Below, piece by piece: positions 3,717-15,551 of a DNA stretch of 15,736 nucleotides; position 1 is the first letter of the stretch; each line of letters opens with the position of its first letter. The stretch lies in NCBI GenBank assembly GCA_016929465.1, contig JAFGIT010000351.1, forward strand, positions 1 through 15,736. The letters are read 5' to 3'. The notes beneath the pieces were generated by a model. That model was not told where the DNA came from and searched no databases. It was given only the letters and a program-made list of their open reading frames with translations. Source of the stretch: JAFGIT01 sp016929465 [NCBI: Candidatus Coatesbacteria bacterium] (GTDB lineage: Bacteria; B130-G9). Position numbers and translations under genes: made by a program.

Positions 3717-5315
3717 ATGGGCAAATCATCTCGGATAATATCAATTGCAGCGTTGCTAGCAGCTGTCATGGCAGTTCTCTTGGCTGGCCTCGCCGGCGCT
3801 GAGCCGGTCCTTTCCAACGTCAAGATCACTCTTTCGAGCGGGTCCATTCTCGACGCCAACGTCATCTATTGCCAGAATGAAGGAGCCGAGTTCCTTCTCG
3901 AGGCAGACGGTATTTGCTATGCCTTCGTGTTTGCGGTTGACCCGTCCGGCGAAGTTCGCCTCGCATTCCCGAACCAGGGCCACCCGTTCAACATGCTGAG
4001 CCCAAATCAAACCATGAGGGTCCCTGACAGCGGTTACTCACAGGGCGTGGGAGTCACGACCGGGTGGGCGGCGCTCGTTGCCGTGGCCTCGGATGACCCA
4101 TCTTGGGCGTATAGCTTCAATGAGTTCTATGCGCCGGGGGTCTGGAATGCTAACCTGTTTTCTGCTTGGGCGGGTCAAGACAGCTCTGCAATCGAAGCAT
4201 CATCGGACGGCACTTCAGGCAGTTGCCGGGCGGGGATATCGCCCGACATGAGAGATGAGCTCAGGGAGGAGATCCAGCACCGAGGTCCATCCATCACTTC
4301 CGAGAAGGTCGATGGGATATTGGCTCAGGCGAGAGCGGCTGTCCACGGTTATCGCTTCGCCTTCGAGAAGCAGCGCTATTGCGTTGCGAGTACCGCTTAT
4401 GCGACCCCCTCCTATTACGGGAGCGATGACGCCGAGACCAGTTCCTATTCGTATTCATGGTATGTCTTCAACGACGACCTATCCCCATACGGATACTGGG
4501 AATTCTATTCCGGCTACGGCTACGTCTGGCGTCCGTATCACGTGTCCATCGGGTGGGGTCCATACTACCGCGGCCGCTGGGTATTTACCTCATACGGTTG
4601 GACGTGGGTATCGTCTGATCCGTGGGGGTGGATAACCTGCCATTATGGCTATTGGGCAAAGACCCGAAGATGGGGCTGGGTCTGGCTTCCAGGCAGCGTG
4701 TGGTCCCCCGCGCGGGTCTCTTGGTACAGGTCGAAGGGTCACGTCGGATGGCGCCCGGCTCCACTGCCGTCGCATATCAGGGTCTCATTCGAGGTGGACT
4801 TGGACGACTACTCCATGACATACGTGTCGCGCGACCATTTCACCTCCGACAAGGTGGACAGATACGCCCATCATGGCTCTCTCAAGAAGCAAGGTGATGG
4901 CTTCATGACCGATGACGGAGACAAGATGGAGAGATTCCTCGGCGCGACGCCCGACAAAGAGCGTGAATTGGCCCCGGGTTCGGTCACGACCTTCGGCGTC
5001 ACGAGCAGCGACCTCGATAGCGGCCAGGGCAGGATCTATGGCTACTATAGGGTCGAGGATGAGAATCTCCGCATATTCAAGCCCAAGATGGAAAAGTCCA
5101 TCCGATATGACTCGAATTTCATTCCGCTTCGGAAGTCAAACTCGCCAAGATGGGATTATAGGCCAAATCCGGACAATGAAAGGTCGAGACCCAAGCAGAA
5201 GGCCCCCGATAAGCCGAAATCTAAGGAAAAAGAGAAGAAGAAGTCCTCTTCTCCGAAGGAAAAGCCAAAAGGCTCAGATCGAAGAAAGGCTGAGCCGAAG
5301 GAGAAGAAGGATTGA
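3717..5315 (+). CDS. Exported aromatic-rich protein, DUF4384-like plus DUF6600-like
   Basis: 532 aa, function unknown. Residues 1-28 are a signal peptide with a likely cut after AGA (GLAGA|EP). Residues ~32-130 resemble DUF4384: FVFAVDPSGEVRLAFPN followed by small beta segments. Residues ~247-350 are a Tyr/Trp/Gly block of the DUF6600 type: FNDDLSPYGYWEF, GYGYVWRPY, GRWVFTSYGWTWV, DPWGWITCHYGYW, GWVWLPGSVWSPARVSW, GHVGWRPAPLP. The last ~45 residues are a Lys/Pro/Ser/Glu low-complexity tail (KPKSKEKEKKKSSSPKEKP), strongly basic. Such proteins are taken to be secreted or periplasmic; a charged tail could contact the cell wall, polysaccharide or DNA, but that is inference. The start is set by the consensus ribosome-binding site. 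The lipoprotein gene begins 29 bp after the stop and may be co-transcribed, though no functional link is evident. Confidence 0.85.
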   Translation: MGKSSRIISIAALLAAVMAVLLAGLAGAEPVLSNVKITLSSGSILDANVIYCQNEGAEFLLEADGICYAFVFAVDPSGEVRLAFPNQGHPFNMLSPNQTMRVPDSGYSQGVGVTTGWAALVAVASDDPSWAYSFNEFYAPGVWNANLFSAWAGQDSSAIEASSDGTSGSCRAGISPDMRDELREEIQHRGPSITSEKVDGILAQARAAVHGYRFAFEKQRYCVASTAYATPSYYGSDDAETSSYSYSWYVFNDDLSPYGYWEFYSGYGYVWRPYHVSIGWGPYYRGRWVFTSYGWTWVSSDPWGWITCHYGYWAKTRRWGWVWLPGSVWSPARVSWYRSKGHVGWRPAPLPSHIRVSFEVDLDDYSMTYVSRDHFTSDKVDRYAHHGSLKKQGDGFMTDDGDKMERFLGATPDKERELAPGSVTTFGVTSSDLDSGQGRIYGYYRVEDENLRIFKPKMEKSIRYDSNFIPLRKSNSPRWDYRPNPDNERSRPKQKAPDKPKSKEKEKKKSSSPKEKPKGSDRRKAEPKEKKD

Positions 5316-5344
5316 GCCGGCGTGGATAGACCGCGGGGAATGGT

Positions 5345-6886
5345 TTGAGGCCGGGATCTCTGGCGGCGATCGCGCTGTCGATATGTCTTCTGATTGGCTG
5401 TGGGCAGGATGAGCCCTCCCCCCACCCGGGCAGCAGGCTCACCATAGCCCTTCAATCCGACCCCACATCGCTTGACCCCAGGCTCGCGACTGACGCGATG
5501 TCGAGTAGGGTGATCGACCTCCTATTCAATGGTCTCTTCAAGAACGACCCAAACGGGAGCATGCAGCCGGACCTCCTGGAGAGCTATAAACGCAATAGCG
5601 AGACTTCTTACCTTCTGAAGGTGAAGGAGGGCGTCCTCTTCTCGAATGGCGCCGAACTCACCTCCGATGACGTGAAATACACGATAGAGTCGGTGATGGA
5701 CCCGGCGTTCGGTTCTCGGAAGGCGGCGGCGTTCAAGAACGTGTCAATGGTCGAGATAATGGACCGCTATTCACTTATGGTCTGGCTTAAAGAGCCCCAG
5801 GCGAGCTTTCTCGAGTGTCTGAAGATTGGGATTGTGCACAAAGGCGAGGCGGAAAAGGCCGGAGACGAGTTCGCTTCCAGGCCCGTCGGCACCGGCCCTT
5901 TCACACTCGTCGAGTGGGATAAGGGCAGCCATATAGTGCTCAGGAGACGAGATGACTACTTCGAGGGAGCGCCCAGGATCGAGGCGATCGATTGCAGGAT
6001 AGTGCCCGACACATCGACCAGGCTCCTCGAGCTAAGGAAAGGATCGGTCGAATTCGTCGAGAATGACATCCCGCCGGAACTCGTAGAGGCCTTTCAGGGG
6101 GACGCGAAGTTCAAAGTCGAAATGGCCCCAAGCAGCACTTTCAAGTATATCGGGATTAATATGAAGCACCCCATCCTGTCAAGGCGTGATGTGCGTGCGG
6201 CGATGGCCCACGCAATCGACAGGAATTCGATAGTCGATAGGCTCCTGCTTGGCCAGGCGACGCTTGCGTCGGGGCTTCTCTGCCCGGGCAATCCGTTCTA
6301 CCTTCCTGACCTGAAGCAATACGAGTTCGACCCGGCACTTGCACGCAGGATGCTCGACGAGGCGGGGCTTATGGTTGACGCCGAAAAGGGCTGCCGGTTC
6401 TCGATCACCTTCAAGACCTCGAAGGATGAAAGGGCGAACCAGATCGCACAGATCATCCAGCAGCAACTCTCAGATGTTGGGATCCAGATGGAGATCAAGT
6501 CTTACGAGTGGGCGACCTTTTATAGCGACATAATCGGCGGCAACTTCGACATCTACTCACTCACCTGGGTGGGTATCTCGGACCCCGACTTCTTCTACGA
6601 CGCCTTCAACTCAAAGAGCATCCCCCCGAATGGGGTCAACCGGGGCCATTACAGCAATCCTGAGATCGATAGGCTCACGGAACAGGGCAGGATAGAGCTG
6701 AATCCATCCGTGCGCCTGGAAACCTATAGGCAGGTCCAGGAGATAATCGCCCACGACCTGCCATACATCCCCCTCTGGTACCCCCACAACGTCGCGATTA
6801 TGTCCAGCAGGCTGAAGGGATTCGAGCTGTATCCGTCGGGTGATTTCAAGTCATTCGCGAAGGCAGAGCTTCTCCCAGCGCAATGA
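5345..6886 (+). CDS. Peptide/nickel-type ABC transporter substrate-binding lipoprotein (SBP family 5)
   Basis: 513 aa, the usual size for the OppA/DppA family. It captures oligopeptides or related solutes outside the inner membrane. The N-terminus is a lipoprotein signal with lipobox LIGC and lipidated Cys19. Family features: LTIALQSDPTSLDPRLATD, VIDLLFNGLFKND, ESYKRNSETSYLLKVKEGVLFSNG, LTSDDVKYTIE, PVGTGPFTLVEWDKGSHIVLRR, LSRRDVRAAMAHAIDRNSIV, and near the end DLPYIPLWYPHNVAI. The start is TTG 5345 with GGGGAA just upstream; a nearby ATG at 5340 is in another frame. The stop overlaps the permease start by 4 bp (ATGA), so the two are translationally coupled. The ligand cannot be inferred from sequence alone. 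Confidence 0.93.
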   Translation: MRPGSLAAIALSICLLIGCGQDEPSPHPGSRLTIALQSDPTSLDPRLATDAMSSRVIDLLFNGLFKNDPNGSMQPDLLESYKRNSETSYLLKVKEGVLFSNGAELTSDDVKYTIESVMDPAFGSRKAAAFKNVSMVEIMDRYSLMVWLKEPQASFLECLKIGIVHKGEAEKAGDEFASRPVGTGPFTLVEWDKGSHIVLRRRDDYFEGAPRIEAIDCRIVPDTSTRLLELRKGSVEFVENDIPPELVEAFQGDAKFKVEMAPSSTFKYIGINMKHPILSRRDVRAAMAHAIDRNSIVDRLLLGQATLASGLLCPGNPFYLPDLKQYEFDPALARRMLDEAGLMVDAEKGCRFSITFKTSKDERANQIAQIIQQQLSDVGIQMEIKSYEWATFYSDIIGGNFDIYSLTWVGISDPDFFYDAFNSKSIPPNGVNRGHYSNPEIDRLTEQGRIELNPSVRLETYRQVQEIIAHDLPYIPLWYPHNVAIMSSRLKGFELYPSGDFKSFAKAELLPAQ

Positions 6887-7803
6887 TCTCACCCGCCATT
6901 AGGAAGCGCCTGCTCATGTTTCCGATCACCGTCTTCTTTGTCTGCACGGTTGTCTTTTTCGTCATCCATCTCGTCCCGGGTGACCCCGCAGCGCTCATGC
7001 TCGGCGAATCCGCGGAGCCAGGTGACATCGAGGCCTTAAGGAGCCAACTCGGCCTTGATAGACCATTGGGCGCCCAATACACATCGTATCTTGTGGGCCT
7101 TCTAAGGCTCGACCTCGGCCGTTCGATATGGACCAAGGAGCCGGTCCTCGACCGGATTCTCGACCGGTATCCTGCGACGATGGAGCTCGCCCTCTTCGCG
7201 ATGGTTTTCGCCGTGGTATTCGCGATCCCGATCGGCATCCTGTCAGCAATGAAGCCTAACAGCCTGATTGACCGCCTTGCGATGTTCCTCTCGGTGTTGG
7301 GCGTTTCGATCCCGAATTTCTTCCTTGGGCTGGTCCTGATCGTGGTCTTCTCGGTGGAGCTCGACCTTCTGCCTGTTTCGGGGCGTGGGGGCATAGAGCA
7401 TATCATCCTGCCCGCGGTGACGCTCGGTCTTGGGATGTCAGCGATACTCGCGCGGATGACGCGGAGCCAGATGATCGAGGCGCTCGCCTCGGATTATGTC
7501 CGCACAGCGAGGGCGAAGGGCCTTTCCGAGTTCACGGTCATCACGAAGCATGCCCTCCGCAACGCACTCACCCCGGTCGTTACCATCCTGGGCCTGCAGA
7601 TGGGGGCGCTGCTCACGGGTGCCATCATAACCGAGACGATATTCTCATACGAGGGCATCGGCTCGCTCATGATCCAGTCGATAGCCCGCCGAGACTACCC
7701 CCAGGTGCAGGCCTGCGTCCTCGTGATCGCGATATCCTACGTCCTCGCCAACCTCTTCGCCGACCTCACTTACAGGGCCCTCGATCCCCGGATAAGGTTG
7801 TAA
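6883..7803 (+). CDS. DppB/OppB-type ABC transporter permease
   Basis: 306 aa, about six membrane segments, inner membrane. The N-terminus has the DppB signature FFVIHLVPGDPA, followed by the external region LRSQLGLDRPLGAQY. The EAA loop that contacts the ATPase is visible: ALASDYVRTARAKG then ITKHALRNAL. The C-terminus ends LDPRIRL, usual for the family. ATG 6883 overlaps the lipoprotein stop by 4 bp. The DppC-type permease and the DppD/DppF ATPases that normally follow are absent; a palindromic element and a convergent gene come next. The partners must be elsewhere, or the operon has been cut short. The gene itself looks intact. Confidence 0.94.
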   Translation: MISPAIRKRLLMFPITVFFVCTVVFFVIHLVPGDPAALMLGESAEPGDIEALRSQLGLDRPLGAQYTSYLVGLLRLDLGRSIWTKEPVLDRILDRYPATMELALFAMVFAVVFAIPIGILSAMKPNSLIDRLAMFLSVLGVSIPNFFLGLVLIVVFSVELDLLPVSGRGGIEHIILPAVTLGLGMSAILARMTRSQMIEALASDYVRTARAKGLSEFTVITKHALRNALTPVVTILGLQMGALLTGAIITETIFSYEGIGSLMIQSIARRDYPQVQACVLVIAISYVLANLFADLTYRALDPRIRL

Positions 7804-7831
7804 TTGCAGCTTCGCGTCAAAGGAGCTTTGG

Positions 7832-7913
7832 TGTAGGGGCGGGGCTTGTCTCCGCCCTTTGCCGGACGCGATTCAATGTGACGAAGTGGGCAGACACAAG
7901 GCCTGCCCCTACA
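7832..7913. repeat. Palindromic two-hairpin element (GTAGGGGC type)
   Basis: The 20-bp ends (7832-7851 and 7894-7913) are inverted repeats matching at 17 of 20 positions, beginning TGTAGGGGC and ending GCCCCTACA. Each arm also folds on itself: GGGCGG (7837-7842) with CCGCCC (7852-7857), and GGGCAG (7888-7893) with CTGCCC (7903-7908). The element is 82 bp, carries no gene, and sits between convergent genes. This architecture matches short palindromic repeats dispersed in many genomes (REP- or MITE-like). I recall similar GTAGGGGC palindromes from metagenome contigs but cannot confirm this here. It could end transcription in both directions, though no T-run is present. Confidence 0.65.
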
Positions 7914-7972
7914 GAAGACCCTCATGTCGATTCATGGCTCAGCCTCTTGCAGACCGCCGGAAGGGTCAAGCT

Positions 7973-10261
7973 TCAATCCCTATGATGGCTGACGACCGAG
8001 ACTTTCTTCCCCCTCGCCCCGATAAGGCAATCAAAGCCCCCGAGCAGGCTGATTGCGCCGTAGAACGTATATTCCCCGGGTGGGAGCGCCGCGGTATCCA
8101 TCCGCAGCAGCTCGTGCGTCTCGATCGACTTCCCGCAGATGACGTATTTGACCGGTGTGGGTATGGGCCCCCAATCGGGGTAGTAATACATGCTCCCGTT
8201 GTGCTCGCACGCTAGCCATAGGAGCACGGGATACGCGCTGCCAATGGCATTAGTGAACGCCCCCGTTACGACCAGCGATGAGTCATCGCTCTCCTCGAGA
8301 GATAAGACGAGCTTCTGCTGGGCTGCGCCACCGTCGATGATCCGGTTAAGGCGGCTCTTTGCTCCGGGTATTTCGGCACGCCAAGTACCCACCCACTTAT
8401 CTCCATTGTGGTCGATTAGAAAGCTCGTGATCCAAGGGCTCGAAAGGCCATCTTCCATGGATATCTGCCGCCAGTCTTCAATGCTGTTCCCACAGAAAAG
8501 CCCGCTTTTGGGCTCGTACGCTTCGCCCTGGTAACTCCACCATTTCCCATCTGCATCCTGAACGAAGTTCCAAAGATCCTCCTCGTCGCATAATTTGGTC
8601 CTCCGACCATCTGCATCGACTAGATCGCGGCCCTCCTCCGGAGAGCATGTGAGGAAGCCTCCATTGATATCCAGCTCCAAGACCCACTTCGGAATGTTAT
8701 CGCCCGGAAAGAAATGGGTCCACTCCTTCCCGTCGAAAGTCGTAAAGCCGAAGTCTGTCTTGAACCACTTGACGTCGCCGGGGCCTATTTTGACCTCCGT
8801 TGTATAGCTTCCCCTGAAATACTGAGATGCATCATATTTGGTAAGAACATTGCCGCTAATACTGTAGGGGGGGCCAGGCTCCAGGAAATCGGGGCTGAAC
8901 CAAAGAGTCCCACTCCGGTCAACTATTGGTAAAGGGCCTTTGATGGGCCACAGGCCCGTGTCGGGCGCCACAGGATTGCTATCTCGAATGGCGGCGATAG
9001 AAAATTCACGATACGGATACTTTCTGTAGTTGAAGACCTGAAAGAACAAAGTGCCATCCAAGTCCATGAGAGGGGCGTGGCGGCTCGAATATCCGTCCAT
9101 GCCGATTTGTATGATATCCCTCCAGGCATCACCTCTGCATCCGCAGATGACCGGACAATTGAGGTCATAGAACCAGGCAAATCCGTTCGAATCAAGACCA
9201 ATACTCCTTGCGTGGTTTCCTGGAGCACGGTCTGAGTGGAATCTGGAGAGGTGCCCGTCCTCGAGTGCTAGTAATCCATACCCCGATGTGCCTATCATGA
9301 GAATATCGGATTCAATCAAAGCGGAACAACTGAAGAATGGACTATCAGAGCCCTTTCGGAGTTTGCCGATAGGCATACCGAATAAGTCCGAGACCTTTGT
9401 AACTGAAGGCTCGGACCAGCGGAGCATGCTCTCGCGCCCGAATAGCCACACGCCCCCAGATGCGTCGAATTGGATTACTCCCGAATAGGAGTCCCGGCCA
9501 AGCACTGCATCATCCGACATCAACTCCCAGTCATTTCCACTTCTCCGATATAAAGCGGGAGGTTCCGTTGTCGAGCACCAAAGCTTATTCTTATCGTCAA
9601 TGCCGACCGCTTTCACTCCTTGGATATCCTGTACATCCCAGCTGGAGCCATAGAAGCGTACCAAATTCTGCTCAACATCTCGGTGACAAAAGCGGATCCA
9701 GACGTCCCCTTGGGCATCGATAAGGAGATTTCCCTCGAAAAGGTAGGACAGCCCTACCGGAGCTCTCCCGTAGCTTACCCAGAAAGATGCATCGAACTTC
9801 TTCAATCCTCGGTCGTCATAGCACCAGAGAACACCATCTTGACTGACGGTAACCATATTATTGCCTAAGAAACGCAAACCATTGGCGGGCGTTATGTCTG
9901 TCAGGCGAAGCTGCGGCCCGTCAAGCTCTGCAGCAAAAAGGCTCTCGATATGTGCAAGCTGGTCGCTGGTGGTGTCGAATTGGAGGTATATCTCTGATTC
10001 GCTCTTCAATCGAGCAGAGAATACTGAATCATCTGGAAGACCATTATCTGTGGTGAAAGTCATCACATTGCCGTCCTTGACCACGACCAACCCGGCCTCG
10101 TACGTCCCAATCGCCAATGTGCCATCCTTGTAGTCCATGCACTCGATCCGGTTCGGTCCGGGCCTGATATGTTCTATCACAAGGTCATTCCCGGATGCAT
10201 GTCCGGCAACCAGCATCCCAATGAAGACCACGTAGGGCACAATCGCCCTGATTCCCTTCAT
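7973..10261 (-). CDS. Exported beta-propeller protein (Reg_prop-like sensor-type repeats)
   Basis: 762 aa, read on the minus strand. A signal peptide covers residues ~1-24 (VVFIGMLVAGHASG). Most of the protein is a chain of propeller-like units: GTLAIGTYEAGLVVVKDGNVMTF then TTDNGLPDDSVFS, later NNMVTVSQDGVLWCYDDRGL, DAQGDVWIRF, DASGGVWLFG, DGLSSPWITSFLIDHNGDKWVGTW. These resemble the Reg_prop units (xDxxGxxWxGT) found in periplasmic sensor parts of hybrid two-component proteins, but no membrane segment, kinase or output domain follows. The last ~110 residues form a different beta-rich domain (LVLSLEESDDSSLVVTGAF to LPPGEYTFYGAIS), perhaps Ig-like and of a type seen at the ends of secreted candidate-phylum proteins. 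ATG 10261 follows TGGAG on its strand. Ligand unknown; a stand-alone sensor or surface protein is possible. Confidence 0.85.
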   Translation of the reverse strand: MKGIRAIVPYVVFIGMLVAGHASGNDLVIEHIRPGPNRIECMDYKDGTLAIGTYEAGLVVVKDGNVMTFTTDNGLPDDSVFSARLKSESEIYLQFDTTSDQLAHIESLFAAELDGPQLRLTDITPANGLRFLGNNMVTVSQDGVLWCYDDRGLKKFDASFWVSYGRAPVGLSYLFEGNLLIDAQGDVWIRFCHRDVEQNLVRFYGSSWDVQDIQGVKAVGIDDKNKLWCSTTEPPALYRRSGNDWELMSDDAVLGRDSYSGVIQFDASGGVWLFGRESMLRWSEPSVTKVSDLFGMPIGKLRKGSDSPFFSCSALIESDILMIGTSGYGLLALEDGHLSRFHSDRAPGNHARSIGLDSNGFAWFYDLNCPVICGCRGDAWRDIIQIGMDGYSSRHAPLMDLDGTLFFQVFNYRKYPYREFSIAAIRDSNPVAPDTGLWPIKGPLPIVDRSGTLWFSPDFLEPGPPYSISGNVLTKYDASQYFRGSYTTEVKIGPGDVKWFKTDFGFTTFDGKEWTHFFPGDNIPKWVLELDINGGFLTCSPEEGRDLVDADGRRTKLCDEEDLWNFVQDADGKWWSYQGEAYEPKSGLFCGNSIEDWRQISMEDGLSSPWITSFLIDHNGDKWVGTWRAEIPGAKSRLNRIIDGGAAQQKLVLSLEESDDSSLVVTGAFTNAIGSAYPVLLWLACEHNGSMYYYPDWGPIPTPVKYVICGKSIETHELLRMDTAALPPGEYTFYGAISLLGGFDCLIGARGKKVSVVSHHRD

Positions 10262-10465: not shown

Positions 10466-10669
10466 ATGAAATGGCGAGTAATTTTAGAGAGGGATCCCGA
10501 GACGGGCGATTGGGCCGTTTGGTGTCCCGAACTCCCCGGATGCATATCCGCCGGCGAAAGCGAGGAAGAGGCGCTATCGAACATCCGCGAGGCAATTGAG
10601 CTTTATCTCGAGCCTTGCGCGATGGAACTCCCAGACGGGACGCTTGCCCGCGAGGTCGTTGTTGGGTGA
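10466..10669 (+). CDS. Solitary HicB-like (UPF0150) small protein
   Basis: 67 aa. The pattern WRVILERDPETGDWAVWCPELPGCISAGESEEEALSNIREAIELYLE is that of the HicB antitoxin fold: a partially degraded RNase-H-like strand set followed by a helix. HicB proteins normally block the HicA mRNA interferase. No HicA-like reading frame lies within 200 bp upstream or 480 bp downstream, and the protein lacks the C-terminal HTH/RHH DNA-binding domain of full antitoxins. AAGGAG (10452-10457) lies eight bases before ATG 10466 and supports the start. It may be an orphan antitoxin, an anti-toxin acting on a distant locus, or a domain with another role. Confidence 0.8.
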   Translation: MKWRVILERDPETGDWAVWCPELPGCISAGESEEEALSNIREAIELYLEPCAMELPDGTLAREVVVG

Positions 10670-11107
10670 GACCGGCATTGCTATATTCATCGAACATGCA
10701 ATCCAATTAATCGCCGCCCTGAATGGGCGAAATGTGAATAGCCGTGTGTGAAACGCACGGATCCGTATAGAGCATCAACCTAGTTTCTTCCCCCGCCCCC
10801 CATTCGCGAAGGCGAATGGGGGGCGGGGGAAGTTTTTTTCTCTTTTTCCGTAGGCTTGCCAAAGGCTGCGCCTACGTCTATTCACATGATGCCCCGCAAG
10901 GGCATTAACTGAATAAAGCAGATTAATTATATAGCGATTTGACGAAATCAATTCTGGCCTTGGATCGCCCACAATTTTGGCTCGCATTGTCAAGCCGCGA
11001 CGAATGAAAGCGGCGTCAAGCCGCCGCAGTCCATACAAGCCCCCCTATTCCCTCACGATCAATACGTAAGCATCTGCTCTTGGGAACATTTGCCGCCCGC
11101 TCTTGGT
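10670..11107. other. Gene-free region with clustered hairpins
   Basis: No protein with family signature is seen on either strand. Hairpins in order: CGCCC-TGAAT-GGGCG (10715-10729); CCGTGTG-TGAAA-CGCACGG (10742-10760, one G-U pair); the terminator at 10788-10847; CGTAGGC/GCCTACG (10849-10855 with 10870-10876) enclosing GCC-AAA-GGC; ATGCCC-CGCAA-GGGCAT (10889-10905); and GCGGC-GTCAA-GCCGC (about 11010-11024). The first three could be the 3' part of the hicB transcript or a separate structured RNA. An 87-codon frame on the minus strand (11038-10775) runs straight through the terminator stem and looks non-coding. Confidence 0.55.
10788..10847 (+). terminator. Very strong intrinsic terminator (perfect 20-bp stem)
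   Basis: Arm 10788-10807 and arm 10812-10831 are exact complements over 20 bp, with loop GAAG and a GC-rich base (CCCCCGCCCCCC with GGGGGGCGGGGG). A T-rich tract follows directly (seven T at 10833-10839, five more at 10843-10847). It ends plus-strand transcription from hicB or from a transcript within the gene-free region. Confidence 0.9.
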
Positions 11108-11129
11108 TATTTGGTTATATTGCCAAATA
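11108..11129 (+). promoter_or_regulatory. Probable ArsR operator overlapping the -10 box
   Basis: A perfect dyad TATTTGG-N8-CCAAATA lies 31 bp before the arsR start. The N8 spacer contains TATATT (11116-11121), close to the -10 consensus. A second dyad TTGCC-AAATA-GGCAA (11120-11134) overlaps the right arm, and the octamer TTGGTTAT is repeated in tandem at 11103-11118. No good -35 box is present (TTGCCG at 11090-11095 would leave 20 bp). A repressor bound here would block polymerase, which fits ArsR autoregulation. Confidence 0.6.
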
Positions 11130-11159
11130 GGCAACGGTGAAAGCGAGGGTCATTGGATT

Positions 11160-11480
11160 ATGGAAAAGAAGAGCAAGGCGAAATATGAGGCGAGGGCCGC
11201 GATAATAAAGGCGCTCGCGCATCCGACGCGGCTATTCATCGTCGATCAGCTCGAAGGCGGAAAGCGCTGCGTGTGCGAACTCACGAGAATGATTGGCGTG
11301 GATATGTCCACCGTATCGAAGCACCTCTCGGTCCTGAGAGCGGTCGGGATTGTCCAGGACGAGAAGGTAGGCCAACAAGTATTTTATCAACTGAAGGTCC
11401 CCTGCGTTCTCAGCTTCCTCGGTTGCGTCGAGTCGGTTATCAAGTCGAACGCCGAGGCGCAGATGGAGCTCGTTGGATGA
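11160..11480 (+). CDS. arsR: ArsR/SmtB-family metalloid-responsive repressor
   Basis: 106 aa, the usual size, a dimeric winged-helix repressor released from DNA when it binds a thiophilic ion. The helix-turn-helix spans ~38-62 (CELTRMIGVDMSTVSKHLSVLR), followed by the wing (GIVQDEKVGQQVFYQL). C37-V-C39 in GKRCVCEL matches the alpha-3 metal site of As(III)/Sb(III)-responsive ArsR (ELCVCDL). Two more cysteines near the C-terminus (C82, C89) could contribute a third ligand. ATG 11160 has GAGGGT about nine bases upstream; the frame is open to 11103 but that would overlap the operator. Its stop overlaps the permease start by 4 bp, so the repressor controls the operon that follows. The effector (arsenite or another thiophile) is inferred from the CxC motif. 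Confidence 0.9.
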   Translation: MEKKSKAKYEARAAIIKALAHPTRLFIVDQLEGGKRCVCELTRMIGVDMSTVSKHLSVLRAVGIVQDEKVGQQVFYQLKVPCVLSFLGCVESVIKSNAEAQMELVG

Positions 11481-12784
11481 CGGATACAGTTAAGAAAGAG
11501 GTGAAGACGCTACTGCTCTTCATCGCAGTCTTCCTTGGGGCATACTATCTCCCGGTCGGGACGCCGCGGTTCGACAATGCGGTCTTCGAGGCGTTTCGTT
11601 TATTGAAATCCTACGCGAGGGAGCACGTCCTGTTGTGCCTGGTCCCGGCCTTCTTCATTGCGGGTGGGATCTCGGTCTTTGTAAGCCAGGCCTCGGTCAT
11701 GAAGTATCTTGGAGCGCGTGCAAACAAGTTCCTCGCCTATGGTGTCGCCTCGGTCTCCGGGTCTGTGCTTGCGGTGTGCTCCTGCACCGTCCTCCCGCTC
11801 TTCGCGGGCATATACCGGATGGGTGCGGGGCTGGGTCCGGCGACGACTTTTCTGTATTCCGGACCAGCTATCAATGTCCTCGCGATCGCTTTGACTGCCC
11901 GCGTGCTGGGGATTGAGATCGGAATTGCCCGCGCGGTGGGGGCGGTCTTATTCAGCGTCGTGATTGGGCTCTTGATGCACCTGATCTTCAGGAAGGAAGA
12001 GCAGGAAAGGCAGACGGCACACGCCGCGATGCCTGAGCCGGAAGTGACCAGGCCACTCTGGCAGAATGCGGTCTATTTCGCGACAATGATCGGTGTGCTG
12101 GTGTTTGCCAATTGGGGCGCGCCGCAGGGCGATTCTGGCCTATGGCAGGCTGTCTATTCCGCCAAGTGGTTTATCACCGGCGCTTTCGCGGTGGCCTTCG
12201 GTGTGGTCCTTATCGCCTGGCTTGGCGTGAGGTGGTGGAAGGTAGTTGCGGCAGCCCTGCCGGCGATAATTTTGGCACTCCTATTCCCAGAGGCTCCGAT
12301 ATTCGGCTTTGCAGCGGGTATCGTCGGGCTTTTCGTCATCACCGCATCGAGCCAAGGGGAGCCGAAGGAGTGGTTCTCCAGCACCTGGATTTTCGCCCAG
12401 CAGATACTTCCGCTGCTATTCTTCGGGGTGCTTATTGCGGGGGCGCTGCTTGGCCGTCCCAACCACGAGGGGCTGATCCCTTCCGAGTGGGTCAATGCGG
12501 CCGTGGGTGGCAACTCGATCTTCGCGAACCTCTTCGCCTCGATAGCTGGCGCATTCATGTATTTCGCGACTCTGACAGAGGTCCCCATCCTGCAAGGGCT
12601 TATAGGTGCTGGCATGGGCAAAGGCCCTGCGCTTGCGCTCCTCCTTGCGGGCCCCGCGCTGTCGCTGCCGAACATGCTCGTAATAAGACGTATCATGGGC
12701 ACCACGAAGACCATCACCTATGTCTCTCTCGTGGTGGCGATGGCGACGATATCAGGCGTTCTATTCGGAATGGTGGTCGATTGA
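11477..12784 (+). CDS. ArsP-type permease (DUF318/YraQ family), likely metalloid or organoarsenical efflux
   Basis: 435 aa with about ten membrane segments. The family block CSCTVLPLFAGIYRMGAGLG (residues 101-120) runs into PATTFLYSGPAINVLAI, with the paired cysteines C101 and C103 inside the membrane region. A degenerate second copy lies at ~365-400 (TLTEVPILQGLIGAGMGKGP, then ALLLAGPALSLPNML), indicating internal duplication. ArsP proteins studied elsewhere export trivalent organoarsenicals; other DUF318 members have unknown substrates. The start is ATG 11477, overlapping the arsR stop (ATGA); the frame is open further upstream, but only as a shadow of arsR. A hydrophilic loop (~172-192, RKEEQERQTAHAAMPEPEV) separates the halves. 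The thioredoxin gene follows 27 bp later. Confidence 0.88.
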   Translation: MTDTVKKEVKTLLLFIAVFLGAYYLPVGTPRFDNAVFEAFRLLKSYAREHVLLCLVPAFFIAGGISVFVSQASVMKYLGARANKFLAYGVASVSGSVLAVCSCTVLPLFAGIYRMGAGLGPATTFLYSGPAINVLAIALTARVLGIEIGIARAVGAVLFSVVIGLLMHLIFRKEEQERQTAHAAMPEPEVTRPLWQNAVYFATMIGVLVFANWGAPQGDSGLWQAVYSAKWFITGAFAVAFGVVLIAWLGVRWWKVVAAALPAIILALLFPEAPIFGFAAGIVGLFVITASSQGEPKEWFSSTWIFAQQILPLLFFGVLIAGALLGRPNHEGLIPSEWVNAAVGGNSIFANLFASIAGAFMYFATLTEVPILQGLIGAGMGKGPALALLLAGPALSLPNMLVIRRIMGTTKTITYVSLVVAMATISGVLFGMVVD

Positions 12785-12811
12785 GCGGATACAATCAGGA
12801 GAGTTTTTTGC

Positions 12812-13285
12812 ATGACTAAAGGACAGGAAGAACCAATGAGCAAACCTCGGTCGAAGGTCGCGACGAAGATTGCGATCGTCGCGATACTCATCGCAGCGGT
12901 CGCAGGAGCATTCTATCTCCGGGAGAGCAAGAGCGGCGAGCCCGCGAGCACTGAATCGCAGGTCATCAACGCCATTTGTGACCAGGCACAATCTGCAGCA
13001 AGCCTTCCACGGCTGGTGGACCTCGGCGCGGGAAAGTGCATCCCATGCAAGATGATGGCCCCAATACTCGAACAGCTGAAGAAGGACTTCGAGGGGAAAT
13101 TCGAGGTCGTAGTCATAGACGTTTGGAAGGACCAGGCCAAAGCAACTGAATACGGCGTGCGCCTGATCCCCACCCAGATATTCTACGACGCGTCGGGCAA
13201 GGAACTATTTAGGCACCAGGGCTTCTTCTCCCGGGAGGACATTCTCAAGACCTGGAGGAATTACGGGCACGATTTTGGCGAGTGA
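12812..13285 (+). CDS. Membrane-anchored thioredoxin-fold protein (CIPC)
   Basis: 157 aa. One N-terminal membrane segment (~19-36, AIVAILIAAVAGAFYL) is preceded by basic residues (KPRSKVATK), so the N-terminus should be inside and the thioredoxin domain outside the cytoplasm. The active site is GKCIPCKMMAP (C76, C79), then VVVIDVWKDQ, and the cis-proline P120 in RLIPTQIF. The C-terminal FRHQGFFSREDILKTW belongs to a thioredoxin subfamily that I know beside CcdA-like genes. The start is ATG 12812 with AGGAGAG (12797-12803) eight bases upstream; ATG 12836 is an alternative with a weaker site. An extra Cys56 sits between anchor and active site. It probably receives electrons from the next gene's product; its client, perhaps the permease or its substrate, is inference. 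Confidence 0.88.
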   Translation: MTKGQEEPMSKPRSKVATKIAIVAILIAAVAGAFYLRESKSGEPASTESQVINAICDQAQSAASLPRLVDLGAGKCIPCKMMAPILEQLKKDFEGKFEVVVIDVWKDQAKATEYGVRLIPTQIFYDASGKELFRHQGFFSREDILKTWRNYGHDFGE

Positions 13286-13315
13286 TCGAAAGACTGGGTT
13301 TGAGATAGGATAGCC

Positions 13316-14014
13316 ATGCAGGAGCTTTTCACACAATTGACCCACGCCGTAGGGGAGACACCCGCGATCGCCCTTCCCGCATCCTTCGTGTGGGGTGTAT
13401 TCAGCGTCATCCTGAGCCCATGCCACCTCGCGAGCATCCCCCTGATCGTCGGCTTCATCAACCGGCAGGGCAGGACCACGCCAAGGCGAGCGTTCTGGAT
13501 TTCCTCCCTATTCGCGCTTGGGATCTTGATCACTATTGCCATTATAGGTGCGATCACAGGAATGGCTGGCCGGATGCTCGGGGACCTTGGGCGCTATGGG
13601 AATTACTTCGTGGCTCTCATCTTCTTCGCTGTCGGATTACACCTGCTCGACGTCATCCCAATGCCGTGGTCCGGCCCCGGCAATGTGAAAATGAAGCGAA
13701 AGGGCGTGCTTGGAGCCTTCATTCTCGGCCTCATTTTCGGAATCGCGATTGGCCCATGCACGTTCGCCTACATGGCCCCGATGCTTGGGGTCACTTTCAA
13801 GCTCGCTTCCGAGAATATGCTCTACGGAATCCTGCTCCTGCTCGCTTACGGCATCGGGCATTGCTCGGTCATCGTGGTCGCCGGGACCAGCACGGAGCTC
13901 GTTCAGCGCTACCTGAATTGGAACGAGCGGTCGAGGGGCTCGGTAATTCTCAAGAAGATCTGCGGCGCTCTGGTCTTATTCGGCGGCGTCTATCTCATCT
14001 ATACCGCACCATAG
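13316..14014 (+). CDS. CcdA/ArsG-type membrane thiol-disulfide transporter
   Basis: 232 aa with about six membrane segments, inner membrane. It resembles the CcdA/DsbD core, which moves reducing equivalents across the membrane. The two redox cysteines sit at matching places in the two halves: C36 in ILSPCHLASIPLI and C148 in AIGPCTFAYMAPML, each before a proline-bearing helix. Further cysteines are C183 (GIGHCSVIV) and C216. Relatives in arsenic-type operons are annotated as ArsG-family aminobenzylarsenical efflux permeases; that transport role is less well supported than electron transfer, and both names should be kept. ATG 13316 has AGGA seven bases upstream. The gene follows the anchored thioredoxin by 30 bp, so the two are almost certainly co-transcribed. 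Confidence 0.85.
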   Translation: MQELFTQLTHAVGETPAIALPASFVWGVFSVILSPCHLASIPLIVGFINRQGRTTPRRAFWISSLFALGILITIAIIGAITGMAGRMLGDLGRYGNYFVALIFFAVGLHLLDVIPMPWSGPGNVKMKRKGVLGAFILGLIFGIAIGPCTFAYMAPMLGVTFKLASENMLYGILLLLAYGIGHCSVIVVAGTSTELVQRYLNWNERSRGSVILKKICGALVLFGGVYLIYTAP

Positions 14015-14099
14015 GTGAATCACGGCGGGGCATGTAGCTACACATACTTGGACTATCGATTGAATAATAGGAAATCGGCTGAAATACAGCTTAGAGTGA

Positions 14100-14111
14100 G
14101 TGTTCGAACAC
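14100..14111. promoter_or_regulatory. Perfect 12-bp palindrome GTGTTCGAACAC
   Basis: It lies in the 204-bp gap before the mini-thioredoxin gene. A second palindrome, TGTAGCTACA, is at 14033-14042. Either could be a dimeric regulator site. No convincing -35/-10 pair was found in the gap, and neither palindrome matches the dyad ahead of arsR. Confidence 0.4.
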
Positions 14112-14218
14112 CTCCTCGGAAACTGGAACTAACAATATGCCAGCCGGTGTTTTACAATTGACCGCCACGCCTTGACGCGCGTTGAGACGGTCGCGAAATA
14201 ATCAGTTAGGAGAGATTG

Positions 14219-14455
14219 ATGAAAAGACTTCAGATACTGGGCGCAGGATGCCCAAAATGCGAGAAGCTCGAGGAGAATACCAGGGCTGCGGCCAAAGAGC
14301 TTCAGATTCAATACGTGTTGGAGAAGATCACCGACATAGAGCGCATAGGCGAATTCGGTGTGATGATGACCCCGGCGCTCGCGGTTGATGGGGAAGTGAA
14401 GGCGCAGGGCAAGATGCTCTCTGTCAAGGAGATAATGGTCCTGATTTCCGAATAA
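14219..14455 (+). CDS. Mini-thioredoxin (TM0996/MTH895 glutaredoxin-like family)
   Basis: 78 aa, the family's usual size. Active site GAGCPKCEKL (C11, C14) right after the first strand, then a helix, and the cis-proline P52 in VMMTPALAVDGEV. It has no signal peptide or membrane segment and so acts in the cytoplasm. Members often lie beside DUF318 permeases and ArsR genes. Here it is well placed to hand electrons to the CcdA-type transporter, though that direction is inference. ATG 14219 has AGGAGAG (14208-14214) just upstream; TTG 14216 is an alternative adding one residue. It is separated from the four-gene operon by 204 bp with palindromes, so it may have its own promoter or be transcribed by read-through. 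Confidence 0.9.
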   Translation: MKRLQILGAGCPKCEKLEENTRAAAKELQIQYVLEKITDIERIGEFGVMMTPALAVDGEVKAQGKMLSVKEIMVLISE

Positions 14456-14571: not shown

Positions 14572-14594
14572 CGTCTCATCTTGAGACGCTTTTT
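14572..14594 (+). terminator. Intrinsic terminator after the mini-thioredoxin gene
   Basis: CGTCTCA (14572-14578) pairs with TGAGACG (14582-14588) around the loop TCT, followed by CTTTTT. The stem is short (7 bp) but perfect. It separates the redox/permease unit from the CDF gene. ATCTTGAGACG, the right half, is repeated at 14615-14625. Confidence 0.7.
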
Positions 14595-14642: not shown

Positions 14643-15551
14643 ATGACCATTGATGCGAACGCGTCTGAGCTCCATCACATCGGTGGCGTGCGAAGGGCGA
14701 CCTGGATTAGCCTCATCGTCAACGTGCTGCTTTCGGCCCTCAAATTGGCCGGCGGAATCGTCGGATCGAGCCAGGCCATCATCGCCGACGGGGTCCACAG
14801 CCTTTCTGACAGCAGCACCGACATAGCGATCCTCATCGGTGTGAAATTCTGGTCGCGGCCTCCCGACGACGGCCACCCGTATGGCCATCGTCGCATTGAG
14901 ACGCTCGTCACCGTGTTCATCGGGGTCGTGCTTATAGCAGCCTCCATCGGGCTGATCTATAACGCGATTGTGACCCATCAGCAGAAGCATACCGAGGCTC
15001 CGAGCTGGATCGCGCTCGTTGCTGCTATCATCTCGATAGTCAGCAAGGAGATACTCTACCGCTGGACCAGGAACATCGGCAGACGACTCAAATCGAGCGC
15101 GGTCATCGCAAATGCCTGGCACCATAGGTCTGATGCGTTCAGCTCGATCCCGACCGCTGTTGCCGTCTCAGTCATGTTGCTTCACCCTTCATTGGCCTTC
15201 CTCGACCATATCGCGGCAGTCGTGGTCTCATTTTTCATATTGCGAGTTGCCTGGAATGTCCTAAAGCCGGCGCTGAAGGAACTGGTTGATGCGGGCGCTT
15301 CCGAAAAGGACTGCGAGAAGATTCGTGCGATCGCTCTTTTCACTGACGGAGTTCGAAAAGTCCACGCGATTCGCACTCGATATGTTGGGCCGGGCCTATC
15401 TGTTGACCTTCATGTCCAGGTCGATCCCGAGATGACCGTCCGCCGCGGTCACAATATCGGCGGCGAGGTAAAGAGCAAACTGCTCTCCGAGGGGCCGGAT
15501 GTCACGGATGTAATCGTCCACCTGGAACCCCACGAACCGGAAACAGATTGA
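14643..15551 (+). CDS. Cation diffusion facilitator (divalent metal efflux)
   Basis: 302 aa, the standard size, six membrane segments plus a cytoplasmic C-terminal domain. CDF proteins export Zn, Mn, Fe, Cd or Co in exchange for protons. The transport site is H52xxxD56 in ADGVHSLSD together with H160xxxD164 in WHHRSDAFSS, where FieF/YiiP has D45xxxD49. The segment GHPYGHRRIETL is the conserved loop after the second helix. The cytoplasmic zinc-binding residues of YiiP have counterparts: H241 (KVHAIRTR), H257 (DLHVQV), H270 (RRGHNI), H293 and E295 (VHLEP). An HD-HD site is more often linked with Zn, but the metal is not certain. ATG 14643 has only a distant purine-rich stretch (GAGGGA), so initiation may be weak. 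It follows a terminator, so it is likely a separate unit. Confidence 0.93.
   Translation: MTIDANASELHHIGGVRRATWISLIVNVLLSALKLAGGIVGSSQAIIADGVHSLSDSSTDIAILIGVKFWSRPPDDGHPYGHRRIETLVTVFIGVVLIAASIGLIYNAIVTHQQKHTEAPSWIALVAAIISIVSKEILYRWTRNIGRRLKSSAVIANAWHHRSDAFSSIPTAVAVSVMLLHPSLAFLDHIAAVVVSFFILRVAWNVLKPALKELVDAGASEKDCEKIRAIALFTDGVRKVHAIRTRYVGPGLSVDLHVQVDPEMTVRRGHNIGGEVKSKLLSEGPDVTDVIVHLEPHEPETD

What the first reader, a model, noticed from the sequence alone, without database searches (positions are those of the whole stretch)
11160..14455. A complete trans-membrane dithiol relay attached to an ArsP-type permease
Seen: ArsR (CxC), a permease with a CSC pair at residues 101-103, an N-in anchored thioredoxin (CIPC), a CcdA-like protein with one Cys in each half (C36, C148), and a cytosolic mini-thioredoxin (CPKC). 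Known: CcdA/DsbD proteins carry electrons from cytosolic to external thioredoxins, and ArsP exports trivalent organoarsenicals. Inference: electrons run mini-thioredoxin to CcdA-like protein to external thioredoxin, which keeps either the permease cysteines or the extruded thiol-bound metalloid reduced. The gene set recurs in other genomes, but how redox and transport are coupled is, to my knowledge, not settled.
Basis: partly seen in the sequence, partly recalled or inferred. Interest (0 to 1): 0.62.

Follow-up and report, generated by a model that had tools for sequence, protein, structure and literature searches.

The report
Arsenic exporter with membrane thiol relay
A bacterial gene set pairs an arsenic-type export pump with small thioredoxins and a membrane protein that can carry reducing power outward; the set recurs widely, is partly described already, and suggests that a protein now labelled an arsenic pump (ArsG) may really be such an electron carrier.

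Summary
The five genes are real and form one unit (11160-14455), bounded by terminator-like hairpins and preceded by an operator-like inverted repeat.

The set is conserved: 73 of 80 close permease loci have the mini-thioredoxin, 56 of 80 a CcdA-type partner. In 118 genomes of one phylum, 73 of 89 high-scoring ArsP-family permeases lie within 5 kb of a mini-thioredoxin, against 1 of 52 low-scoring ones. But 36 of those 89 have the mini-thioredoxin and no linked CcdA-type gene: permease plus mini-thioredoxin is the core, the membrane relay an optional module.

The module comes in two forms: window-type CcdA/thioredoxin, or ArsG with ArsF. The two membrane proteins were never found together (0 of 59 module-bearing loci, 0 of 118 genomes). 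ArsG is profile-homologous to the CcdA-like protein, so I infer that ArsG works as a thiol conduit, not a second pump. In-frame TGA codons replace the first mini-thioredoxin Cys in four genomes.

CcdA/thioredoxin/disulfide-protein trios in ars operons were reported in 2010: a new variant of a known kind. The final electron acceptor is unproven.

The parts
10787..10832 (+). strong intrinsic-terminator-like hairpin upstream of the unit
   Evidence: 20-pair stem, T tail; consensus match only, 5 found in the region against 3.8 expected in shuffles
11103..11134 (.). inverted repeat, 12-nt arms, 25 bp before arsR: candidate ArsR operator
   Evidence: 83% complementary arms; position is the only other support
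11160..11480 (+). ArsR/SmtB-family regulator with CVC and, near the C-terminus, PCVLSFLGC
   Evidence: PF01022 54.9 bits; NF033788 85.8 over 55; 52 of 69 upstream ArsRs have CxC[E/D/Q], 53 of 69 the PC..C pair
11477..12784 (+). ArsP-family permease, long variant (435 aa), three invariant Cys: C54, C101, C103
12836..13285 (+). membrane-anchored thioredoxin, CIPC at 68-71, domain outside (inferred)
   Evidence: alternative start 12812
13316..14014 (+). CcdA-like six-helix membrane protein, 'type A'; C36 in helix 1, C148 at the end of helix 4, C183 (GHC) in helix 5
   Evidence: (profile hits PDB 5vkv CcdA, E 1.4e-11)
14219..14455 (+). mini-thioredoxin (MTH895/ArsE family), CPKC at 11-14, cytosolic (no anchor seen; inferred)
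   Evidence: PDB 1ilo MTH895, E 3.7e-16
14572..14588 (+). terminator-like hairpin closing the unit before the CDF gene
   Evidence: consensus match only

Best explanation
This is an ArsR-controlled efflux operon for a thiol-reactive metalloid, most likely trivalent (organo)arsenic. Core: the ArsP-type permease exports the metalloid through a site built on three invariant cysteines, and a cytosolic mini-thioredoxin serves permease and/or substrate directly. Add-on: a trans-membrane dithiol relay in which the mini-thioredoxin (or another cytosolic thioredoxin) reduces the CcdA-like protein through C36/C148 (C183 perhaps assisting), which reduces the anchored external thioredoxin. That thioredoxin most likely acts outside on the exported arsenical or on thiols that bind it, keeping it trivalent or releasing it. 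ArsF/ArsG is an alternative form of the same add-on. Shown here: gene content, conservation, pairing, exchange of the two module forms, homology of ArsG to the CcdA-like protein. Inferred: direction of electron flow, identity of the external acceptor, role of the permease cysteines, and arsenic as substrate.
For: Genes and motifs. Co-localisation in 118 genomes of one phylum: 73 of 89 PF03773 permeases of 180 bits or more have a TIGR00412 mini-thioredoxin within 5 kb (median distance 125 bp among the 73) against 1 of 52 lower-scoring ones; with cut-offs from 150 to 190 bits the low class keeps 1 and the high class 73 of 107 to 73 of 88. Second phylum, 144 genomes: 24 of 28 long-type and 18 of 43 short-type high-scoring permeases, against 2 of 59 low-scoring. 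CcdA-type modules: 32 type A and 24 type B among 80 close loci; 48 of 49 genomes with a module have a mini-thioredoxin. Other CcdAs (profile score under 170 bits) lie near such a permease in 1 of 38 cases. Swap: 0 of 59 module-bearing loci and 0 of 118 genomes hold both membrane types; at least 12 A/B changes on the permease tree by parsimony. ArsG-CcdA homology: hhalign probability 98.5, E 2.6e-15, first Cys aligned; ArsG scores PF13386 DsbD_2 at 59 bits. Arsenic context: ArsM, ArsC or Acr3 on the same strand in 22 of 80 loci; an ArsM beside the operon in sister genome G002. Redox or soft-metal role of the Cys: in-frame TGA at the first mini-thioredoxin Cys (UPKC) in four genomes.
Against: 36 of 89 permeases of the class have the mini-thioredoxin and no linked CcdA-type gene, and 15 of 89 have neither. 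35 of 119 mini-thioredoxins have no listed permease within 5 kb. In the second phylum 20 of 61 genomes with a high-scoring permease have no mini-thioredoxin, and short-type permeases lack it more often than not. The permease Cys are invariant with or without a linked module. The characterised C. jejuni arsP was shown to export by expressing that gene in E. coli (PMC6205960, passage read), so an ArsP need not have a dedicated relay. No ArsM, ArsC or Acr3 was identified in the window (families searched for 7 of its proteins only), and no ArsM over the family cut-off in the window's 86%-complete genome; 58 of 80 loci show none of the three on the same strand (many contigs are cut). Structure models gave no significant fold match, and no complex could be modelled.
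Confidence: 0.55

Rival explanations
1. The redox genes serve cytosolic arsenic enzymes: mini-thioredoxin and thioredoxin supply electrons to arsenate reductase ArsC (or to the arsenite methyltransferase ArsM), and the CcdA-like protein is incidental. This is close to the 2010 proposal for such trios.
For: PMC2963123 found 8 instances of the trio in ars operons, 7 with arsC (passages read). ArsC on the same strand in 14 and ArsM in 8 of 80 loci.
Against: 66 of 80 loci show no ArsC on the same strand (many contigs are cut) and none was identified in the window; the thioredoxin is predicted to face outside; a membrane conduit is not needed for a cytosolic enzyme (the 2010 authors say that trans-membrane flow seems less likely because ArsC is cytoplasmic).
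Confidence: 0.15
2. The CxxC proteins act as metalloid-binding carriers rather than electron carriers: the mini-thioredoxin hands the trivalent arsenical to the permease, and the external thioredoxin accepts it on the other side, comparable to the ArsD chaperone.
For: The mini-thioredoxin pairs with the permease without a linked CcdA in 36 of 89 cases; a TGA at its first Cys and a permease with three invariant Cys would suit a ligand-exchange chain.
Against: It leaves the CcdA-type protein unexplained, and modules almost never occur in genomes without a mini-thioredoxin (1 of 49). Possible for the core while the module does redox work.
Confidence: 0.2
3. The substrate is not arsenic but another soft metal or metalloid (antimony, mercury, copper, selenium or tellurium species).
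For: The nearest named NCBIfam relative of the permease is the SO_0444 Cu/Zn family (114 bits, cut-off 300 not met); a CDF metal transporter follows; no ArsM over the cut-off in the window's genome.
Against: ArsR with the CxC and PC..C cysteines; ArsM, ArsC or Acr3 on the same strand in 22 of 80 loci; PF03773 is the ArsP family.
Confidence: 0.2
4. A housekeeping cytochrome-c or protein-disulfide module (CcdA plus thioredoxin) that merely sits beside an arsenic gene.
For: PF02683/PF13386 membership and CcdA-like topology.
Against: A separate CcdA exists in the same genome (C290, 65 bits; lacks the GHC Cys). Window-type CcdA (170 bits or more) lies near a high-scoring permease in 25 of 37 cases, other CcdAs in 1 of 38 (the profile was built from permease-linked proteins, which favours this).
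Confidence: 0.03

Closest known systems
[quoted passage not shown] passages read)
   Same: Same trio of redox families in ars operons; CcdA proposed to receive electrons from a thioredoxin-like protein.
   Different: There tied mainly to ArsC (7 of 8 instances); here tied to an ArsP-family permease, with the exchange against ArsFG and the core/add-on split not described in the passages seen.
ArsEFG (roxarsone/nitarsone system; Chen, Zhang and Rosen 2019, seen only as a cited reference and as NCBIfam names)
   Same: ArsE gives its name to the mini-thioredoxin family (TIGR00412); ArsF is thioredoxin-like (recalled, and weak match to the thioredoxin profile); ArsG is in the DsbD/CcdA superfamily.
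   Different: The window's CcdA-like protein fails the ArsG cut-off (53 of 200 bits) and its thioredoxin has no ArsF hit. ArsG is described as an efflux transporter (PMC9144182, one sentence read).
ArsP methylarsenite permease
   Same: Pfam PF03773 family, over the cut-off.
   Different: Long variant with three invariant Cys and linked redox genes; the characterised C. jejuni protein was active when its gene was expressed in E. coli (PMC6205960, passage read).
CcdA / DsbD transmembrane electron carriers
   Same: Two Cys placed as in CcdA (helices 1 and 4), six helices; profile hit to PDB 5vkv.
   Different: Third Cys in GHC: present in 31 of 33 type A proteins, the other two being cut short, absent in 24 of 24 type B. 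Of 9 other CcdA-type proteins read, 0 have GHC and 2 have a Cys at that place; one of the 9 (L117, 194.6 bits) falls in the type A score range without GHC.
SO_0444 Cu/Zn efflux and SaoE permeases; Sao and Tso selenoprotein systems
   Same: Related permease; in-frame TGA can replace the first Cys of the CxC (USC in G012; SO_0444 'UxC' is listed in PMC13188914, passages read).
   Different: Other PF03773 class by score, almost never linked to the mini-thioredoxin (1 of 52; only two members were typed by NCBIfam).

Membership tests
ArsP (PF03773) | Pfam profile over its cut-off | tested here: met
   240.9 bits, cut-off 32.3
ArsP (PF03773) | exports trivalent organoarsenicals | not testable with these tools
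   no assay; context only
CcdA/DsbD-type electron carrier | DsbD_TM profile, six helices | tested here: met
   52 bits over 27.1; six hydrophobic segments
CcdA/DsbD-type electron carrier | Cys pair, one in helix 1 and one in helix 4 | tested here: met
   C36 and C148 in 23 of 23 rows (rows picked by the C36 motif); both motifs in 33 of 33
CcdA/DsbD-type electron carrier | predicted fold matches a solved CcdA | tested here: inconclusive
   sequence profile matches 5vkv; Foldseek on the model found nothing with E of 0.001 or less
CcdA/DsbD-type electron carrier | carries electrons across the membrane | not testable with these tools
   none
ArsG (NF040495) | curated cut-off 200 bits | tested here: not met
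   window protein 53.2 bits; the one type B protein scanned meets it (295.6)
ArsF (NF040494) | curated cut-off 60 bits | tested here: not met
   no hit for the window thioredoxin
MTH895/ArsE mini-thioredoxin (TIGR00412) | curated cut-off 62 bits and CxxC | tested here: met
   97.2 bits; CPKC
SO_0444 / SaoE permeases | curated cut-offs 300 and 325 bits | tested here: not met
   114 and 98 bits
ArsR/SmtB metalloregulator | NF033788 cut-off 55 bits; thiol ligands | tested here: met
   85.8 bits; CVC and PC..C in the sequence, conserved in relatives

The most novel reading that the evidence does not exclude
ArsG is not an efflux pump: ArsFG and the window's thioredoxin/CcdA pair are interchangeable outward electron conduits, and ArsP operons of this class therefore couple export with reduction outside the cell. 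The cell would hold the exported arsenical in its trivalent, thiol-reactive form (as protection of the export route, or as a poison for competitors) instead of merely removing it.
Probability: 0.35. Interest if true: 0.75.

Novelty: new variant of a known kind. Interest (0 to 1): 0.52.

Why it matters
If right, it separates three things that annotation now mixes: the pump (ArsP class), its dedicated cytosolic thioredoxin, and an optional outward reducing module. It would correct the label of ArsG ('efflux permease') and make testable whether microbes control the oxidation state of arsenicals outside the cell, which bears on arsenic toxicity in anoxic soils and on the proposal that methylarsenite is a weapon between microbes (PMC11653729, passages read).

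Tried and rejected
Rejected: a chance neighbourhood. Rejected as a membership claim: that the window's CcdA-like protein is ArsG or its thioredoxin is ArsF (cut-offs not met). Rejected: spread on known plasmids; one place at 46% identity in 72,556 plasmid records. Rejected: that sister genome G003 lacks the relay. It looked absent within 8 kb, but an RND efflux set is inserted before it. L032 and L070, labelled without module and in the tree, have the same kind of insert, so their labels may also be artefacts of the 8-kb limit; their CcdA-type gene is not in view.

Led nowhere: Foldseek for both models (no match with E of 0.001 or less); the keyword search for ArsE/MTH895 gave noise; the primary ArsP and ArsEFG papers and the two Haft papers on selenoprotein systems are not held, so their content is cited only through other papers or as recalled.

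Limits: bit cut-offs 180 (permease) and 170 (type A; next lower score 142) were chosen after seeing the scores (one search shows that the first is not critical). Both phylum sets contain their centre genome (G012, G014), which had been found through the permease; the rest were not chosen by it. Rows I left out before counting: 9 listed partial PF03773 matches (G150 x3, G133 C71, G081 C41, G078, G066, G053, G052) and 7 low ones (G175, G204 x2, G287, G253, G167, G177); one search also says that further matches are not listed. One of the left-out rows, G150 C64, is a permease end beside a TGA-bearing mini-thioredoxin, so G150 counts wrongly as 'mini-thioredoxin only'; G175 C44 is similar in the second set. 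The type A and B profiles were made from permease-linked proteins picked by the motif around the first Cys. The permease tree is a quick one (81 inner branches, 16 starred, 37 drawn open); starred branches alone force fewer changes (A 5, B 2). Mutual exclusion holds for the membrane proteins only: a type A-like thioredoxin, a second low-scoring thioredoxin-like protein and ArsG occur together in L004, L005, L008, L020 and L035 (the second protein confirmed as ArsF only in L008), and sister genomes G001 and G002 have ArsF-like genes beside type A (by profile score and motif, not by NCBIfam). L008 and L091 also hold a further, distant CcdA-family protein (27 and 65 bits).
Full report
WHAT IS THERE. 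The window is the whole of contig C81 of a 3.19-Mb, 423-contig assembly estimated 86% complete. Its phylum has only 4 genomes in the collection. Between a strong terminator-like hairpin (10787-10832) and another (14572-14588) lie five genes on the plus strand: an ArsR-family regulator, an ArsP-family permease whose start overlaps the arsR stop, an N-in anchored thioredoxin, a CcdA-like protein with six hydrophobic segments, and after a 204-bp gap a mini-thioredoxin. An inverted repeat with 12-nt arms sits 25 bp before arsR.

FAMILY ASSIGNMENTS. Permease: PF03773 240.9 bits; it fails the SO_0444 (114 of 300) and SaoE (98 of 325) cut-offs. CcdA-like: DsbD_TM 52 bits; ArsG only 53 of 200. Mini-thioredoxin: MTH895/ArsE family, 97 over 62. 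By sequence the CcdA-like profile finds solved CcdA 5vkv (E 1.4e-11), and the mini-thioredoxin finds MTH895 1ilo. Models of the CcdA-like protein (pLDDT 82.4) and of the permease (80.8) gave no significant Foldseek match, so the fold assignment rests on sequence.

CONSERVATION OF THE SET. The 80 best permease relatives in named genomes (61-74% identity; more existed than were kept) come from many phyla. Within 8 kb and on the same strand, 73 of 80 have the mini-thioredoxin, 32 have a window-type CcdA (type A), 24 an ArsG-type protein (type B), 11 neither, and 13 cannot be judged because the contig ends (after removing the window and three sister genomes from its 84 rows). The commonest order is ArsR, permease, mini-thioredoxin, thioredoxin, CcdA-type. 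All 4 of 4 genomes of the window's phylum in the collection carry the complete set; in G003 a TolC/HlyD/AcrB-type efflux set lies between permease and relay (HlyD and AcrB parts typed).

CONTROL NOT STARTED FROM THE PERMEASE. I searched 118 genomes of the phylum of Desulfosediminicola (G012) for PF03773 and TIGR00412. Of 89 permeases of 180 bits or more, 73 have a mini-thioredoxin within 5 kb (68 within 2 kb); of 52 below, 1 (the low class stays at 1 for cut-offs from 150 to 190). Against a rough chance expectation of 0.5% per permease this is decisive. At genome level 77 of 80 genomes with a high-scoring permease have the mini-thioredoxin, against 6 of 38 others; 84 of 119 mini-thioredoxins have a listed permease within 5 kb. 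In 144 genomes of the phylum of Persicirhabdus (G014): long type 24 of 28, short type 18 of 43, low-scoring 2 of 59; 41 of 61 genomes with a high-scoring permease have the mini-thioredoxin, against 5 of 83 others. The association is strongest for the window's long type (28 of 31 in the first phylum).

CORE AND ADD-ON. In the 118 genomes, of the 89 permeases 36 have only the mini-thioredoxin within 8 kb, 25 mini-thioredoxin plus type A, 12 mini-thioredoxin plus type B, 1 type A alone, 15 none, and 0 both types. Of the modules, 29 of 37 type A and 14 of 15 type B lie within 8 kb of a mini-thioredoxin, and 25 of 37 and 12 of 15 near such a permease. The mini-thioredoxin is therefore the hub, and the trans-membrane pair is optional. 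It argues that the mini-thioredoxin also acts without CcdA, unless unlinked CcdA genes serve it (not tested).

TWO FORMS OF THE MODULE. The type B proteins scanned are ArsG (one protein, 295.6 bits over 200) and ArsF (three proteins, 99.7 to 114.8 over 60) by NCBIfam. The type A and B profiles are homologous (hhalign probability 98.5, E 2.6e-15), with the first Cys aligned and the helix-4 Cys two columns apart. Pfam places two ArsG-type proteins in DsbD_2 (59 bits over 24.9). The two membrane proteins were not found in one locus (0 of 59 with a module) nor in one of 118 genomes (34 with A, 15 with B; Fisher one-sided 0.004, or 0.0002 among the 83 genomes with a mini-thioredoxin; genomes are not independent). 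On a quick permease tree the A/B state changes at least 12 times by parsimony, with both forms inside a supported group of four (L004 and L008 type B, L006 and L026 type A, support 96). A shared slot, shared homology and repeated exchange beside an ArsP-family pump suggest that ArsG does the CcdA-type job. This is inference; published work calls ArsG an efflux transporter (one sentence read in PMC9144182).

WHICH CYSTEINES MATTER. In G116, G142, G150 and G126 an in-frame TGA stands exactly at the first mini-thioredoxin Cys (UPKC); in G116 and G142 the gene directly follows a high-scoring permease, in G150 it follows a permease end at a contig edge, and in G126 the contig begins there. Read as selenocysteine, TIGR00412 is still matched at 106-108 bits (two of the four scanned). 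I did not test for SECIS elements or the selenocysteine machinery. In the low-scoring permease class G012 has USC in the CxC motif; PMC13188914 already lists SO_0444 'UxC' and PF13192 selenoproteins (passages read).

SUBSTRATE. ArsR upstream of the permease has CxC[E/D/Q] in 52 of 69 and PC..C in 53 of 69 loci. ArsM (8), ArsC (14) or Acr3 (16) occur on the same strand in 22 of 80 loci. Examples were typed: four ArsM over the cut-off, one Acr3 over the cut-off, and one ArsC with a best score of 142 that is under its cut-off of 174. An ArsM of 361 bits lies beside the operon in sister genome G002, but none over the cut-off in the window's own genome. Trivalent organoarsenic is the best guess. 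ArsP of C. jejuni exports methylarsenite and trivalent roxarsone and not inorganic arsenite (PMC6205960, passage read).

MECHANISM. Most likely: export by the permease; mini-thioredoxin directly coupled to permease or substrate; electrons optionally passed from mini-thioredoxin to CcdA-type protein to external thioredoxin. That CcdA/DsbD proteins carry electrons outward is established knowledge (recalled; PMC2963123 says CcdA might do so). The external acceptor is inferred. The permease Cys triad is conserved whether or not a module is linked, so I favour the exported arsenical over the permease cysteines as acceptor.

NOVELTY. PMC2963123 (2010; [quoted passage not shown] In my ten searches I saw no paper tying the trio to ArsP or proposing ArsG as a CcdA-type conduit; these search open-licence papers only, and I read passages of five papers. 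I rate this a new variant of a known kind.

Noticed in passing
L106 (G003 C223) 3870-9499; L032 8182-13903; L070 from 7990; L009 5433-6845: A TolC/HlyD/AcrB-type efflux set (or part of it; only TolC by this search in L009, HlyD and AcrB in L070) follows the permease directly in 4 loci of different lineages, before the redox genes where these are in view: possible outer-membrane step of the same pathway.
   Followed up: partly
L107 1438-1668, L108 2639-2890, L109, L110: Mini-thioredoxins with in-frame TGA at the first active-site Cys (UPKC), beside permeases where the contig allows: candidate selenoproteins. SECIS not examined.
   Followed up: partly
L111 813-1568 minus strand (G029 C91), same gene in L053 9715-10470: A second mini-thioredoxin-like gene with TGA at the first Cys position and no second Cys (GGDULNANEL).
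   Followed up: no
L089 1945-2208 and 1293-1859 (G001): A second mini-thioredoxin with the Cys pair degenerated (KCRESD) and an ArsF-like protein without its Cys pair, between CcdA and a CDF gene: same slot as the window's mini-thioredoxin, though the window's gene is closer in identity to the permease-linked copy of G002 (74%) than to this one (62%).
   Followed up: partly
G000 C73 1024-2292 (L095): The same genome has a SO_0444-class permease (345.8 bits) with a CopZ-like heavy-metal domain at its end; none of the operon's other profiles matched on that 7.8-kb contig.
   Followed up: partly
window 14643-15551; L039, L056, L072: A CDF cation transporter follows the operon in the window and lies near it in 3 of 80 loci and in sister genome G001, beyond a terminator-like hairpin in the window.
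   Followed up: partly
L021 8582-8980 and 20 further loci; L038 3501-4094: DGC-domain proteins (PF08859, typed in one) in 21 of 80 loci, often between mini-thioredoxin and thioredoxin, and FmdE-domain proteins in 5: unexplained partners.
   Followed up: partly
L027 12595-13616, L052 10483-11510, L072 13474-14486, L081 2082-3121: PF03773-like permeases seen as two overlapping half-size reading frames in tandem.
   Followed up: no
G197 C6, G249 C4, G169 C51, G298 C144, G142 C147, G133 C26: Tandem pairs of PF03773 permeases, each followed by a mini-thioredoxin gene.
   Followed up: no
L008 12114-12506; L091 2134-2862 minus strand: A further, distant CcdA-family protein with a CC pair (ACCALPALG / LCCTLPVLG) near the operon in two loci.
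   Followed up: no
window 10466-10669: A HicB-like antitoxin-type gene (PF15919 40.6 bits) upstream of the operon; a toxin partner was not looked for.
   Followed up: no
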